A DNA stretch of 34,497 bases from Arthrobacter sp. AQ5-05 (lineage in GTDB: Bacteria; Actinomycetota; Actinomycetes; Actinomycetales; Micrococcaceae). Numbering within the stretch: the first letter of the stretch is position 1; each line of letters begins with the position of its first letter. The notes below the pieces were generated by a model, which did not search any database, had not been told where the DNA came from, and saw only the letters and a list, made by a program, of their open reading frames with translations. Where the stretch lies: assembly GCF_003287975.1 (NCBI RefSeq), contig NZ_QMKQ01000036.1, positions 1 to 34,497 of the forward strand. The letters are read 5' to 3'. Of the stretch, positions 5,081-22,962 are shown piece after piece. The position numbers and the translations under genes were made by a program.

Positions 5081-5129
5081 CAGTTTGCCCCGACCGGCTT
5101 CGGCGAATTCTAGGAGTCGTTGCAACACC
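5081..5129 (+). repeat. Left long inverted repeat of the IS30 element
   Basis: Composed of an outer 18-bp block (5081-5098), a variable stretch, ATTCTAG (5107-5113) and GTCGTTGCAACACC (5116-5129). The right end repeats the blocks in the same order, with a spacer about 4 bp longer between the outer block and ATTCTAG. Confidence 0.8.
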
Positions 5130-5135
5130 TGGTGG

Positions 5136-5576
5136 CTAGGCTGCCAACAGTAGTCCACGCAGGCGCTCGGTTGGGGTATCCCAGCCGAGCGTTTTGCGTG
5201 GGCGTCCGTTGAGCAGCCTGCTGACCCGTTCGAGTTCCTCGGGGCCGTGGGCGCCGAGGTCGGTGCCCTTGGGGAAGTACTGGCGCAGCAGCCCGTTTGT
5301 GTTCTCGTTGGATCCGCGCTGCCAGGGGCTGGCCGGGTCGCAGAAATAGACGTCCATGTCGGTGGCGATGCTGAAGGCCTTGTGCGTGGCCATCTCGGCG
5401 CCCTGGTCCCAGGTCAGGGACCCCCGGAGCAGCCCGGGCAGCCCGCCCATGGTCTTGATCAGCCCGTCGCGGACGGTGGCGGCGGTGTGGTCGCCCTCGA
5501 GGTGCACGAGCATCACGTAGCGGGTGGTCCGCTCGACCAGGGTCGCGATCGCGGACTGGTTCAGCGTCCCGGCGAT
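5136..5576 (-). CDS. IS30-family transposase, 3' exon (C-terminal 146 aa)
   Basis: After removal of the intron this continues exon 1 in frame: ...EGDL joins IAGTLNQSAIATLVERTTRYVML. It carries the second catalytic Asp (LTWDQGAEM) and the catalytic Glu (SNENTNGLLRQYFPKG) of the IS30 DDE core, then the usual tail RLNGRPRKTLGWDTP and stop TAG at 5136-5138. The exon length (147 codons with stop) keeps phase with the 397 codons of exon 1, giving a 543-residue product. Without splicing this half would be made only from an internal start such as ATG 5516 and would lack the first catalytic Asp. Confidence 0.9.
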   Translation of the reverse strand: MAGTLNQSAIATLVERTTRYVMLVHLEGDHTAATVRDGLIKTMGGLPGLLRGSLTWDQGAEMATHKAFSIATDMDVYFCDPASPWQRGSNENTNGLLRQYFPKGTDLGAHGPEELERVSRLLNGRPRKTLGWDTPTERLRGLLLAA

Positions 5577-5639
5577 GTAGGGTCGGGCCGGAGCGCGACA
5601 CCGGGATTGCTCCCGGCTCGTTTCTCCGACCCGCCCTCC

Positions 5640-5675
5640 GCACCGGACGTGCGACTCTCATCGCATCCGGCGCTC
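5640..5675 (-). ncRNA. Group II intron domain V
   Basis: On the minus strand the segment starts GAGCGCCGGATGCGATGA and closes with GTCGCACGTCCGGTGC, pairing as the short domain V hairpin with a GAGA-type tetraloop and the AGC-like catalytic base (GAGC...GGTGC). It lies directly after the maturase stop (5689), the normal order: domain IV with ORF, then V, then VI. Confidence 0.9.
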
Positions 5676-5688
5676 CACGGATAGCCAC

Positions 5689-7128
5689 TCAGGCCATGCT
5701 GGCCGCCCACGGCGTCGGGATATTGTGCGCCCGCCACCGATACCGGGTGACCGGTACCGTCGCGGTGTCGAACATCGTGATTCCCTCGGCCTGCGGCTGG
5801 TTTCCGGGCCTTCCTGTCAGAAAGCGCCGGAACAGTTCCCGCCATGTAATGCCGGGGTGTCGTTTGCGGATCCATTGGGTCACCCGATGCCAAATAAACG
5901 CATCAAGGTAGCCGAAGGTCGCCTTGGATACCCCATGGCGGAAATAGTTGCACCAGCCACGCACGACCGCGTTCAGGCGGCCGAGCAGGACGTCCAACGA
6001 AGGATGCTTCGCTCGACGTGTCAGTGCCCGCACCTTCCCGAGAATCGTCAACAAGGACTTCTTCGACGGGTAGGTGTAGACACTCATCTTTTGGGTTCCG
6101 TTCTTCAGTCTTCGCTGGATGTGAAAACCAAGAAAGTCGAACCCCTCATCAACATGGCATACCCGGGACTTGGGCACGGAGATCTTCAACCCCAACGGGG
6201 CAATGACCTCCGCAACCTCATCCCAGAGGGCCTCCGCATGGGCTTGGGTGCCAAGGACCATGATCACAAAATCATCCGCGTAGCGGATGATTCGGTACGT
6301 GGCCCCGCCCCGTTTCCGGTGGGCTTCCCTGCGATACGGGGTGCCATGGGCATCCCATTTGTCGCAGAAATGCTTGTCCAAGACCGTCAAGGCGATATTG
6401 GCCAGAAGCGGGGAAATGATCCCTCCCTGCGGGGTCCCGGTGTTGGATTTTCGGATCTTCCCCTCGGCGGACATGATGCCCGCCTTGAGGAACTTCCCGA
6501 TCAGGCTCAGCACGCGCTTGTCCGTGACGCGCTTACGCACCTCGGCGATGACCGCCGAGTGCTTAAGCTCGTCAAAACACGCCTCAATATCTGCCTCGAA
6601 CACCCAGTGGTAATTGCGGGTGGCCATGGCATGAATTTCGGCTATCGCATCCTGCGCCCGACGCTTCGGACGGAAACCGTAACTGACCGGTTTGAAGTCC
6701 GCCTCGAAGATCGGTTCCAACACCAACGCCAGAGATGCCTGAACCACCCGGTCCCTTGCAGTGGGGATGCCAAGGCGGCGGAGTTTCGTGCTGTTCGGCT
6801 TGGGAATCAAACGTTCCCTCACCGGCAACGGGACAAAGGCCCGAGACTTCAGTAGCTCCCTGACCTCCTCCAGAAACTCCACGCTTTCGGCACCAACACC
6901 GATCAGGGCCGGAATGCGCCGGTCAACACCGGCAGTTCGGGCACCCTTGTTTCCCTTGACCCGGCCCCACGCAACGGTGAGGAAATCCCGGTCATGGACG
7001 AGGTTGAACACATCGTCAAAAAGACGGTCAGGATCGCTGACCGCCCAATGGTGCAGTTTCGTCTGCATCGCACGTACCCGCAGGCTCGCCTCATCGAAGT
7101 CGAGCCATCGCGGTTCACCGGTATTCAC
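5689..7128 (-). CDS. ltrA: Group II intron-encoded reverse transcriptase/maturase
   Basis: 479 residues. The protein helps fold and splice its intron and copies it into DNA at new sites. Reverse transcriptase motifs are in order: LGIPTARDRVVQ near 119, GFRPKRRAQDAI near 151, GTPQGGIISPLLANI (231-245), and the catalytic RYADDFVIM with YADD at 283-286. A maturase (domain X) region follows, with GWCNYFRHGVSKATF. No HNH endonuclease zinc-finger (CxxC pairs) is visible at the C-terminus, so mobility would rely on other primers. I chose GTG 7128: GGAGG lies 5 nt before it, whereas the in-frame TTG at 7131 is only 2 nt from GGAGG. The frame is intact, so the intron may be active. Confidence 0.93.
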   Translation of the reverse strand: MNTGEPRWLDFDEASLRVRAMQTKLHHWAVSDPDRLFDDVFNLVHDRDFLTVAWGRVKGNKGARTAGVDRRIPALIGVGAESVEFLEEVRELLKSRAFVPLPVRERLIPKPNSTKLRRLGIPTARDRVVQASLALVLEPIFEADFKPVSYGFRPKRRAQDAIAEIHAMATRNYHWVFEADIEACFDELKHSAVIAEVRKRVTDKRVLSLIGKFLKAGIMSAEGKIRKSNTGTPQGGIISPLLANIALTVLDKHFCDKWDAHGTPYRREAHRKRGGATYRIIRYADDFVIMVLGTQAHAEALWDEVAEVIAPLGLKISVPKSRVCHVDEGFDFLGFHIQRRLKNGTQKMSVYTYPSKKSLLTILGKVRALTRRAKHPSLDVLLGRLNAVVRGWCNYFRHGVSKATFGYLDAFIWHRVTQWIRKRHPGITWRELFRRFLTGRPGNQPQAEGITMFDTATVPVTRYRWRAHNIPTPWAASMA

Positions 7129-7493
7129 CAATGCCTCCGTTCCTTGCAGTAGCTACTGCGTCATATCCGCTGGGGCCCTTCGCCATGTACGAGGCTTTCC
7201 CCCGTTCGGACTACTACGGCCCCTCCGCCCCATCGTGCGCCGATCGGCGGACAACACGCCCACCCGAAACCATGGCCCTGGATGGGCCCACGATCACGGG
7301 AGATGCACGATGGTTCCCACGTTCACTGTTTACCGATTGGCTGGTTAGGTGCCCAGCTATGCCCCTGCGATATCGCCACGGCTACGCCGCAGGCCTTCAC
7401 CGTGGCCTCGAATGCCAACGATCTTAACCGGCATCCGAGTTCCCACCCCGTAATGAGGGGGTGGTGCGCATCGCAGGCCAGCCCATATCCACC

Positions 7494-7500
7494 GAATTTG
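7494..7500 (-). other. Candidate exon-binding site 1 (EBS1) of the intron
   Basis: CAAATTC on the minus strand, about 240 nt into the intron, can pair with the last seven bases of exon 1 (GGATTTG) with a single G-U pair. Its position agrees with where EBS1 usually lies in domain I. I did not find a convincing EBS2. Confidence 0.45.
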
Positions 7501-7738
7501 AGCTGGCGGGAGACTTGAGAAGCTTTTAGCACTGGTTCCTCTCGTACACCTTCCTGCCTTGCTTGCCGGACCCGACCCATTCGGTAGTGCTGGTCCGTCC
7601 CGGCGTTGTCGGGGCTGCTTTCCGCCCTTCCCGGTGTTTCCTCGGGTTAGACTGCCCCCAGCTTCGTCATGCTGCTGCGACAGCACAACGGCGAAGGTCT
7701 TCCACCTCCGCTCGGTAAAACAGCGCCTCGTGGCGCAC

Positions 7739-8929
7739 CAAATCCCCTTCCCAATGCCCCGGGACTGCGCGGTCTTCGACCTCGGCGGGGCGCTCGGAAA
7801 TGTTGACCATCTCATCGCGGAACCGGCTGGTGCGCTTTTCCGGGTCCGTGTGCGGCTTGCGGCGGGCGCGGCCGGTGCGCAGCGCCGCTGCAACCTCGCG
7901 CCTGAGGCCGCCGCGGGCCTGCAGGTAGAGCGCTTGGTAGATCGTTTCGTGGCACACGTGGAACTCCAGCCTGTCGGGGAGCAGTTTCCTGAGCCGGTTG
8001 CTGATTTGCTCCGGTGACCAGCCTAGGAGCAGCTTCGCCCCCACGTATTTCCGCAAGGTTCCCTCGCAGGCGAGCCTGCTGGTCTTGGGCCGTGGCCGGC
8101 GGCCGGCCGCGGCGCGGTGCGCGGCGTACGGCTGGTAGCCGTTCGGGCCGGTGTTGCGGGCGATCTCCCGGCTCACCGTCGAGACCGGCCGGCCCAGTGC
8201 CCTGGCGATGGCCCGCATCGAGGAGCCGGCCGCCAGCAGGTCGCGGATCTGCTCGCGTTCGGGCAGGGAGAGATAGCGGTCGCTGATTGGCTTCTCCAGC
8301 GCGGCAAGCCCCGGGAACGGGGTTGCGAAGGCCGAGCCGTCGACGGAATTGTAGGTAGTCACCCCTTGTTTGTAGTCGATGACCCGACCATCCGCGTAAT
8401 AACGTCGGCTGCCGACCTTGCGGTTGCCGTTGTCCCAGTCCTCTGCCGTGCGTTCATGAACCCCCGCTAAGGCGGCAGCCTCCCGGCGAGACAGTCCGCT
8501 GCCGCGCAGCCTGAGGAATTCCTCCCGCTTCCCTGCATGCGGCCCAATCGTCGCTATGCCGGCCTTGTACGCCCATTGGAAACACGTTCCCACGGGCATG
8601 CCGACCTCGCGAGCCGCCACCGAAACGCTCCCCACCCGATCCAGGGCGGTGAAGAATCCGTCCTTTTGGTCCTGGGTGTATTTGGTCTTCTTCTTGCCCT
8701 TGCTGCCACTGGCCGGGGACGTGGATTCCGGGGTGAGTTCGCGGGCCCACTGGTAGCACTTGCTCAGGCTGAACCCGAGCTCTGTGGCCGCCGCGGATAT
8801 GTTCCCGGTCCGGTCCAGGACCACCAGGAATCGCTCGCGATCCTCGGAGGAGTACTTCCGGGGACCTGAATGATTCTGGTCGGTTGGTGATTTCTTCGTT
8901 AAAGGCGACACGGTCGTTGCAACTCCCAA
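7739..8929 (-). CDS. IS30-family transposase, 5' exon (N-terminal 397 aa)
   Basis: Encodes two helix-turn-helix-like segments near the N-terminus (NISAAATELGFSLSKCYQWA and SVSVAAREVGMPVGTCFQWA), a third DNA-binding region (LSRREAAALAGVHERTAEDW), then the IS30 signature region (SMRAIARALGRPVSTVSREI; GWSPEQISNRLRKLLP; CHETIYQALY) and the first catalytic Asp in GHWEGD, residue 396. The group II intron begins one codon later. If unspliced, translation runs 24 codons into the intron and stops at 7667. The annotated start is TTG 8929; GTG 8911 (VSPLTKKS) is an alternative. The product is long for IS30 transposases, due to the extra N-terminal repeats. It is joined to 5136-5576. Confidence 0.88.
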
Positions 8930-8951
8930 GGATCTGGGTGTTGCAACGACC
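8912..8951 (-). promoter_or_regulatory. Inverted repeat over the transposase start
   Basis: GGTCGTTGCAAC (8912-8923) and GTTGCAACGACC (8940-8951) form a perfect 12-bp inverted repeat with a 16-nt spacer. The outer arm is part of the terminal repeat of the IS30 element and the inner arm lies within the first codons of the transposase. It could be a transposase-binding pair for self-repression, or an RNA hairpin that blocks translation from outside transcripts. Confidence 0.5.
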
Positions 8952-8989
8952 GCTAGAATCTGCCCTTCTGGGCCGATCGGGGCAAACTG
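8937..8989 (-). repeat. Right long inverted repeat of the IS30 element
   Basis: Inverted counterpart of 5081-5129: GGTGTTGCAACGAC (8937-8950), CTAGAAT (8953-8959) and the outer block ending GGGGCAAACTG at 8989. Confidence 0.8.
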
Positions 8990-9031: not shown

Positions 9032-10072
<1,041 letters not shown>

Positions 10073-18181: not shown

Positions 18182-18254
18182 GCACCTCTAGCTCAATTGG
18201 CAGAGCAATTGACTCTTAATCAATGGGTTTCGGGTTCAAGTCCCGAGGGGTGCA
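18182..18254 (+). tRNA. tRNA-Lys (anticodon CTT), copy 1
   Basis: 73 nt folding as a cloverleaf: acceptor GCACCTC/GGGGTGC, D arm GCTC/GAGC, anticodon stem ATTGA/TCAAT around loop CTCTTAA (anticodon CTT), T arm CGGG-TTCAAGT-CCCG, discriminator A. The 3' CCA is not encoded. Identical in all 73 bases to 22848-22920. Confidence 0.97.
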
Positions 18255-18260
18255 CAGTCA

Positions 18261-18296
18261 AGAAGGCCCGGTTTGCCAAAGCGAACCGGGCCTTCT
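18261..18296 (+). terminator. Terminator after tRNA-Lys copy 1
   Basis: A perfect 13-bp stem, AGAAGGCCCGGTT (18261-18273) with AACCGGGCCTTCT (18284-18296), followed by GCTTT. Confidence 0.85.
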
Positions 18297-22847: not shown

Positions 22848-22920
22848 GCACCTCTAGCTCAATTGGCAGAGCAATTGACTCTTAATCAATGGGTTTCGGG
22901 TTCAAGTCCCGAGGGGTGCA
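22848..22920 (+). tRNA. tRNA-Lys (anticodon CTT), copy 2
   Basis: All 73 bases are identical to copy 1, with the same cloverleaf and CTT anticodon and no encoded CCA. It is followed by a different terminator from copy 1. Confidence 0.97.
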
Positions 22921-22926
22921 CGGTGA

Positions 22927-22962
22927 GAAAGACCCGATCTGTTCCGACAGGTCGGGCCTTTC
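22927..22962 (+). terminator. Terminator after tRNA-Lys copy 2
   Basis: GAAAG-CCCGA-CTGT pairs with ACAG-TCGGG-CTTTC across two single mismatches, followed by GTTTTCCC. Confidence 0.75.

What the first reader, a model, noticed from the sequence alone, without database searches (positions are those of the whole stretch)
5577..7738. Group II intron inserted one codon after a catalytic Asp of an IS30 transposase, with an exactly repairable frame
Removing 5577-7738 joins GAT TTG to ATC GCC and restores EGDLIAG, a core IS30 motif, in frame (397 + 146 codons). The intron has GTGCGCC at its 5' end, ends in AC, and has an intact maturase, domain V and domain VI. A mobile element thus sits inside another, with the host transposase dependent on splicing. 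The insertion lies between the first catalytic Asp and the other two catalytic residues, so no unspliced fragment can be active.
Basis: partly seen in the sequence, partly recalled or inferred. Interest (0 to 1): 0.75.

Follow-up and report, generated by a model that had tools for sequence, protein, structure and literature searches.

The report
Intron that homes to transposase catalytic codons
A self-splicing genetic parasite sits inside another parasite's gene, exactly at that gene's catalytic site, and the same intron lies at that same site in very different relatives of the gene, so the most conserved part of a jumping gene seems to serve as its address.

Summary
On the minus strand, 7738→5577 is a complete group II intron of 2,162 nt: a 480-aa reverse transcriptase/maturase, domain V, and domain VI with a bulged A. 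It splits an open IS30 transposase frame (397 + 146 codons) between D396-L397 and I. The exons match NCBIfam IS30 at 1-140 and 141-267; W-E-x-D is present in 26 of 26 homologues examined without the intron. A blind covariation scan over 89 related introns recovered EBS1, EBS2 and EBS3, so it is IIB-type.

An intron inside an IS is not new (RmInt1 in ISRm2011-2). What stands out is the address: EBS2 and EBS1 lie on the Trp and Asp codons of HWEGDL. Close relatives of this intron occupy the base-exact site in at least nine other IS30 copies. Over nine elements compared, host identities range from 30 to 92% and do not follow intron identities (Mantel r = 0.08), which points to horizontal retrohoming. 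Introns of the wider lineage sit at the presumed first catalytic Asp of six further IS families (34 of 89 in all).

Splicing of this copy is likely but untested. In seven of the nine other cases host gene or intron is visibly broken, so host dependence on splicing does not explain the pattern.

The parts
5102..8964 (-). composite element: IS30-family insertion sequence (1,701 bp without the intron) carrying the intron, 3,863 bp
   Evidence: ends found by alignment with five intronless G014 copies and with G007:C16; terminal inverted repeats around TTCTAG...GTCGTTGCAACACC
8965..8968 (.). GAAG, flanking direct repeat (left in element orientation)
5098..5101 (.). GAAG, flanking direct repeat (right)
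7739..8929 (-). transposase 5' exon, 397 codons, ends ...GHWEGDL; HTH domains and first catalytic Asp (D396)
   Evidence: NF033563 transpos_IS30 profile 1-140; W393 E394 D396 in 26 of 26 homologues
5577..7738 (-). group IIB-type intron, 2,162 nt
5689..7131 (-). intron-encoded protein, 480 aa, RVT_1 + GIIM, no endonuclease domain found
5638..5675 (-). domain V
   Evidence: Rfam RF00029, fold
5579..5637 (-). domain VI; bulged branch-point A at 5583
   Evidence: fold
7508..7513 (-). EBS2 (intron nt 226-231)
   Evidence: mutual-information scan
7420..7425 (-). EBS1 (intron nt 314-319)
   Evidence: mutual-information scan
7359..7359 (-). EBS3 (intron nt 380), pairs with +1
   Evidence: 1.40 bits, 88% Watson-Crick in 72 introns
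7747..7752 (-). IBS2 (-14 to -9), mostly the Trp and Glu codons
7739..7744 (-). IBS1 (-6 to -1), the catalytic Asp and Leu codons
5139..5576 (-). transposase 3' exon, 146 codons, with the other two catalytic residues
   Evidence: NF033563 profile 141-267; D57 26 of 26, E91 25 of 26
8972..8989 (-). half of an 18-bp hairpin stem split by the IS, just downstream of an ilvC-like gene (the other half is 5081-5098)
   Evidence: empty-site fold

Best explanation
It is a mobile, endonuclease-less group IIB-type intron that lives by retrohoming into the DNA encoding the first catalytic Asp of IS30-family transposases. SHOWN by comparison: the intron RNA is matched to its target through EBS2 (W-E codons), EBS1 (D-L codons) and EBS3 (+1); Trp has one codon and Asp two, so this DNA stays pairable when transposases diverge to about 40% identity; close relatives of the intron occupy the base-exact site in divergent IS30s, independently of host similarity. 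INFERRED: it moves by reverse splicing into target DNA and reverse transcription by its IEP; when the IS is transcribed the intron splices out and restores the transposase; riding a mobile IS and sitting where target loss would kill the transposase keeps it supplied with targets. A wider lineage has re-addressed its EBS loops to equivalent catalytic codons of other transposase families.
For: Complete ribozyme ends, DV and DVI and an open IEP frame; window against G007, dN/dS from the values is about 0.14 for the IEP, 0.11 for the 3' exon and 0.32 for the 5' exon. Blind covariation finds EBS1/2/3: own-target pairing 8.61 of 12 against shuffled mean 5.13, maximum 5.90 in 2000 shuffles; shifted registers give at most 5.83. 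The window's EBS pair at 9-12 of 13 positions in 26 of 26 IS30s without the intron; the homologous site ranks first in 16 and in the top 1% in 26. Same site in G007, G006, G065 (two different IS30s), G472, G496, G644, G708 and Actinomadura L006. A search of 207 family genomes with intron DNA alone: the 7 places of at least 80% identity that show the 5' end (own, G006, G007, two in G065, G472, G496) are all at this site. Intron and host identity uncorrelated over nine elements, Mantel r 0.08, p 0.27; G006 intron 97.6% with host 46.6%. The eight IS30-site IEPs used form one group, 98/83, next to a twintron and then the IS3 catalytic-Asp group.
Against: No RNA or mobility data. In the window EBS1 mismatches at -1 and EBS2 has one mismatch. 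One G065 copy (L170) has a C/A mismatch at -4. Of the 89 introns, 55 are not at a first Asp, two of them inside the IS3 first-Asp group (L014, L016), so the lineage also uses other sites. L083 and L108 entered the set through an IS30-directed search, looked only for this junction, and the genome searches scored only two candidates per genome. The reversed-pattern control gave 4 hits, so one-mismatch hits there mean little.
Confidence: 0.8

Rival explanations
1. Host-control reading: as proposed for RmInt1, the intron splices poorly and chiefly silences its IS, restraining a harmful element; its persistence reflects benefit to the bacterium.
For: RmInt1 precedent: <1% of exons correctly spliced and IS spread limited (PMC4238363, abstract and passages). 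In the window genome only the intron-bearing copy of this IS30 was found, while intronless G014 has five near-identical copies.
Against: Only two genomes compared. Introns antisense to IS630 (L003, L049) cannot be spliced from the transposase mRNA yet use a catalytic-Asp site, so target conservation alone can account for the site.
Confidence: 0.3
2. Composite element reading: the IS30 with intron is one functional unit that transposes using spliced transposase, so the intron spreads mainly with the IS.
For: Both exons and the intron are open in the window and G007; 3' exon dN/dS about 0.11 between them. G007 contig C16 (3,865 bp) is exactly the composite element, as if collapsed from repeats.
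Against: The ends of C16 were found on no other contig of G007. Intron and host similarities do not agree. Elsewhere: L006 and L142 3' exons cut by an IS110-like and an IS3-like element, L143 intron cut by an IS21-like element, stops in L172, frame lost in L170, intron truncated in L173, 5' exon broken in G496.
Confidence: 0.2
3. Dead insertion: the intron no longer splices or moves and the IS30 is a relic.
For: Single place in the genome; no expression data.
Against: All recognisable catalytic parts present, low dN/dS of IEP and 3' exon against G007, intact IS ends with GAAG repeats.
Confidence: 0.12
4. Vertical inheritance: the intron entered an ancestral IS30 once and descended with it.
For: Same base-exact site in each case.
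Against: G006: intron 95-98%, host 47%; two IS30s 40% identical occupied in G065 by sister introns; lower synonymous divergence of the IEP (pS 0.163) than of the exons (0.268, 0.26) between window and G007.
Confidence: 0.03

Closest known systems
RmInt1 of Sinorhizobium meliloti in ISRm2011-2 (IS630 family), class IIB3/D
   Same: Endonuclease-less IIB intron homing into an IS transposase gene. The printed 25-nt site CCTCGTTTTCATCGATGAGACCTGG (PMC8914252, passages), with the insertion placed by me after IBS1 GAUGAGA (PMC4238363, passages), translates as VFIDE|T, by my reading the IS630 first-Asp motif
   Different: IS630 instead of IS30; insertion inside the Thr codon rather than between codons; IEP relationship and class not tested here
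c-Ha.de.I1 in Hamiltonella (ISPlu15-like and IS427-like elements)
   Same: Group II intron copies at a fixed position in more than one type of IS, also in copies of itself (PMC3522654, passages)
   Different: Relation to catalytic codons not stated in the passages read
Group IIC introns at terminators and attC sites
   Same: Endonuclease-less, with a recurrent genomic address (PMC4424553, passages)
   Different: They insert at terminator or attC motifs; this one has EBS2 and reads a coding motif
IStrons (group I intron + IS)
   Same: Self-splicing RNA joined with an IS (PMC4227781, abstract start in a search listing only)
   Different: Group I ribozyme, and the IS moves the intron

Membership tests
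Group II intron | Domain V with conserved structure | tested here: met
   RF00029 58.4 bits against gathering 40; fold
Group II intron | Domain VI with bulged A 7-8 nt from the 3' end (distance recalled) | tested here: met
   A at window 5583
Group II intron | GUGYG 5' end and AY 3' end (motifs recalled) | tested here: met
   GTGCGCC...CTAC
Group II intron | Reverse transcriptase/maturase ORF | tested here: met
   RVT_1 121.4 bits, GIIM 73.1 bits; PDB group II maturases, best E 2.3e-53
Subgroup IIB | EBS1, EBS2 and EBS3-IBS3 (rather than delta pairing; criterion recalled) | tested here: met
Endonuclease-less IEP class | No endonuclease domain | tested here: met
   only RVT_1 and GIIM in Pfam at E 0.001
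RmInt1-like (IIB3/class D) | IEP phylogenetic placement | not tested
   no reference class sequences compared
Group II intron | Splicing in vivo or in vitro | not testable with these tools
   needs RNA
Group II intron | Retrohoming to an empty allele | tested here: inconclusive
   comparative evidence only
IS30 family | IS30 transposase profile | tested here: met
   112.3 and 158.7 bits for the two exons, cut-off 80
IS30 family | Terminal inverted repeats, short direct repeat, palindromic target (target habit recalled) | tested here: met

The most novel reading that the evidence does not exclude
A widespread, mainly actinobacterial guild of endonuclease-less group II introns has the catalytic codons of transposases as its ecological niche. 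EBS loops evolve from one catalytic-Asp address to another (IS30, IS3, IS630, ISL3, IS256, IS66, IS1634, with catalytic-Glu and tyrosine-recombinase motifs as further sites), because such DNA is among the most conserved sequence shared by mobile elements and cannot mutate away without killing the target. RmInt1 in IS630 would be the known tip of this rule.
Probability: 0.55. Interest if true: 0.68.

Novelty: new member of a known kind. Interest (0 to 1): 0.52.

Why it matters
Group II introns inside insertion sequences are usually read as parasites sheltering in dispensable DNA. Here the site is predictable: the codons that a transposase can least afford to change. That would explain how an intron restricted to a short target can cross transposases only 30-50% identical and why related introns recur at catalytic motifs of several IS families. 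It makes target choice by group II introns testable as codon-level reasoning, and it offers natural EBS/IBS series for retargeting studies.

Tried and rejected
Rejected: vertical descent of the intron with IS30. Rejected: T at -15 as a strict requirement of the intron; it is T in 66 of 89, and in the twintron L002 it is C while GG at -14/-13 is kept. Rejected as chance pattern hits: L174 (G037) and L175 (G529), one mismatch each; the sequence after the junction is not the intron. The one-mismatch G859 hit was not examined. Controls: the reversed pattern gave 4 hits in the 395 genomes (11 places for the pattern, 9 without mismatch) and 3 in the 396 (2 for the pattern, the window one of them). 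Corrected: I first called the L022 host IS21 from its motif, but its right exon matches the IS1182 model, while L050 matches IS21; neither is counted as a first-Asp site. Led nowhere: looking for further copies of the G007 composite by its ends; a target-blind intron 5'-end pattern found only the window and G472 in 396 genomes.

Limits of the counts: the 89 introns are those whose 5' end aligned. Of these I dropped L041, L137 and L138 by hand, L005, L039, L114 and L115 as near-duplicates, and L139 as too short. Loci without an aligned 5' end are not counted. L083 and L108 came from the IS30-directed; without them the first-Asp count is 32 of 87. One search kept the best 80 of at least 579 relatives. 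The trees used 84 and 88 IEPs. The 26 homologues are from the 29 best new loci, a capped list; some carry stop codons (for instance L094), so they are 'without the intron', not 'intact'. Catalytic roles of motifs are recalled family knowledge. The binomial figure treats related introns as independent, so I do not rely on it.

Full report
WHAT IS THERE. The window is contig C36 of a 4.65-Mb genome; the loci with similar introns are mainly from Actinomycetota. Nothing in the parts of the window that I read looked to me like a resistance, toxin or virulence gene. On the minus strand lies an IS30-family element, 8964→5102, with terminal inverted repeats and GAAG on both sides. Its transposase is cut by a 2,162-nt insert, 7738→5577. 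The insert begins GTGCGCCACGAGG and ends CCGACCCTAC, carries the Rfam group II signature at its 3' end, and folds into a domain V and a domain VI with a single bulged A 7 nt from the end. Its ORF, 480 aa, has reverse transcriptase and maturase domains and no endonuclease domain in Pfam; the best matches among solved structures are group II maturases.

THE HOST GENE. The exons are 397 and 146 codons. NCBIfam's IS30 model is matched at 1-140 by the first and 141-267 by the second, so nothing is missing at the joint. I compared 26 homologues without the intron: of the 29 new loci, two are occupied (L083, L108) and in L101 the match stops short of the site. R387, P390, W393, E394 and D396 are the same in 26 of 26; L397 in 25 of 25 aligned, and the 26th (L094) reads P there. 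In the second exon D57 is kept in 26 of 26 and E91 in 25 of 26. The intron thus follows directly on a highly conserved stretch, between the first catalytic Asp and the other two catalytic residues. The catalytic roles rest on recalled knowledge of DDE transposases; the conservation is measured.

HOW IT READS ITS TARGET. I aligned the first 640 nt of 89 related introns and asked, without any model, which intron columns co-vary with exon positions. The top eight signals fall into two antiparallel runs: intron 226-231 with exon -9 to -14 (EBS2) and 314-319 with -1 to -6 (EBS1); intron 380 with +1 is EBS3 (1.40 bits, 88% Watson-Crick, n = 72; the next column has 0.42 bits). Each intron pairs with its own target at 8.61 of 12 positions on average, against 5.13 for shuffled targets (maximum 5.90 of 2000) and at most 5.83 for shifted registers. 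For the window this puts EBS2 on the Trp-Glu codons and EBS1 on the Asp-Leu codons, with one mismatch each. In the 26 homologues without intron, TGG stands at -15 and GAY at -6 in 26 of 26; the window's EBS would pair at 9-12 of 13 positions, and this site ranks first of 814-1,624 positions in 16 and within the top 1% in 26. Among the occupied IS30s the -4 pair varies: T-A in the window and L172, C-G in L141, L142 and L143, T-G in L169 and L173, but C/A, a mismatch, in L170; compensation is frequent, not complete.

THE SAME INTRON ELSEWHERE. The base-exact site is occupied in G007, G006, G065 (twice, in transposases 40% identical), G472, G496, G644, G708 and Actinomadura sp. KC345. One search looked for this junction, up to one mismatch, in 395 family genomes: 10 had a match; eight of these (nine places, own genome included) without mismatch are real, and the two with one mismatch are chance hits; the reversed control pattern gave four hits. 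In 396 genomes of the phylum only the window matched without mismatch, plus one unexamined one-mismatch hit, against three control hits. To avoid circularity I also searched 207 family genomes with the intron DNA alone (two candidates scored per genome): the seven places of at least 80% identity that show a 5' end are all at the IS30 site; an eighth, in G086, is an internal fragment. G496 shows its 5' end in one IS30 and its 3' end beside another (84% identical to the window's 3' exon), both at contig ends, which suggests several copies. Intron and host do not share a history: over nine elements (G496 left out; first 655 nt of intron, last 180 aa of the 5' exon) identities are uncorrelated (Mantel r 0.08, p 0.27; -0.04 without the window-G007 pair); G006 has an intron 97.6% identical to the window's in a transposase 46.6% identical. 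Between window and G007 the IEP has lower synonymous divergence (pS 0.163) than the exons (0.268 and 0.26).

THE WIDER LINEAGE. Among the 89 introns 34 sit at what I read as the first catalytic Asp: IS30 5, IS3 17, ISL3 5, IS630 3 (two of them antisense), IS256 2, IS66 1, IS1634 1; 32 of 87 without the two from the IS30-directed search. I submitted exon pieces of 12 of these 34 to NCBIfam and the expected family came out in 12: IS30 2, IS3 5, IS256 2, ISL3 1, IS66 1, IS630 1... counted by locus these are the window, L006, L004, L007, L010, L031, L113, L018, L052, L043, L032 and L012, with L126 (IS1634) as a thirteenth, so 13 of 13. Scores of L004, L010, L012, L031, L032, L113 and L126 are below the whole-protein cut-off, as fragments may be. 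The other 21 were assigned by motif or by similarity to the window's exons only. Seven more introns are at other presumed catalytic motifs: ISL3 MDPFHV 3, IS5 WVVER/WIVER 2, ISAzo13 WNKVE 1, tyrosine recombinase HDMR|HTHAT 1. Forty-eight are elsewhere, among them six at an IS3-orfA-like FFAAE motif or variants (by eye) and three in sister introns. On the IEP tree the eight IS30-site introns used form one group (98/83), joined first by a twintron and then by the IS3 group, which also holds two introns not at a first Asp (L014, L016); the first-Asp label needs ten changes, at least nine on well-supported branches, so the address was gained or lost repeatedly.

MECHANISM. Best reading: an endonuclease-less IIB-type retroelement that reverse splices into DNA at catalytic codons of transposases; splicing then hides it in the transposase mRNA. 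Target pairing, site identity and horizontal spread are shown by comparison; splicing, reverse splicing and their efficiency are inferred. Dependence of the host on splicing can be real only where the host works. The window and G007 look intact on both counts, and in G006 I saw no break in the stretches compared. In the other seven, L006 and L142 have their 3' exons cut by other IS and L143 its intron by an IS21-like element, L172 has stops and L170 loses its frame, L173 has a truncated intron, and the G496 5' exon is broken. The two antisense cases show that the address matters even when splicing from the transposase mRNA is impossible.

COMPARISON WITH WHAT IS KNOWN. RmInt1 is an endonuclease-less IIB3/D intron in an IS630 element, with base pairing from -13 to +1 (PMC8914252, passages), very poor splicing (PMC4238363, abstract and passages) and a role proposed in limiting its IS (also PMC5894124, passages). 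Its printed target translates as VFIDE|T, by my reading also a first-Asp motif. Passages of reviews and surveys say that bacterial introns often lie in or beside other mobile DNA (PMC4424553; PMC8919778). My nine searches of the held library listed no paper whose title or abstract start ties group II intron sites to catalytic codons across IS families; most listed papers were not opened and most subscription papers are not held, so this is no proof of novelty.

VERDICT. The element is a new member of a known kind. The catalytic-codon address, its breadth across IS families and the mismatch of intron and host histories are what raise it above the ordinary.

Noticed in passing
window 8972-8989 and 5081-5098: The IS30 landed in the loop of an 18-bp hairpin just downstream of an ilvC-like gene (named by eye; ORF ends at 9032, same strand); it may split that operon's terminator, so the transposase may be transcribed from the ilv operon. 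Several G014 copies also sit between short inverted repeats (by eye).
   Followed up: partly
window 18182-18275 and 22848-22941: Two identical tRNA-Lys(CTT) genes within a 94-nt direct repeat (93% identical) 4,666 bp apart, enclosing an 858-aa ORF on the minus strand; could mark an integrated island or a duplication.
   Followed up: no
L002 4398; L059 4407; L068 4406: Twintrons: introns of the same lineage inserted in sister introns, at about nt 42 (L002) and nt 18 (L059, L068) of the outer intron.
   Followed up: partly
L003 508; L049 4377: Introns inserted antisense at the IS630 CxDEK motif (by motif only), where they cannot be spliced from the transposase mRNA.
   Followed up: partly
L006 6925-8339; L142 4808-6183; L143 3048-5624: Occupied IS30s hit again: the 3' exon cut by an IS110-like and an IS3-like element, and in L143 the intron ORF cut by an IS21-like element (element names by eye).
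   Followed up: partly
window 7739-8929 (minus): This IS30 transposase has a long N-terminal extension with extra helix-turn-helix matches before the usual IS30 one at residues 218-259.
   Followed up: no
L055 718: An intron of the lineage in a tyrosine recombinase gene, in the HDMR|HTHAT motif (model scores below cut-off).
   Followed up: no
G496 C51 and C47 (L171, L195): Contigs end 127 and 125 nt inside the intron, in two different IS30s, as expected if the intron is repeated in that genome.
   Followed up: partly
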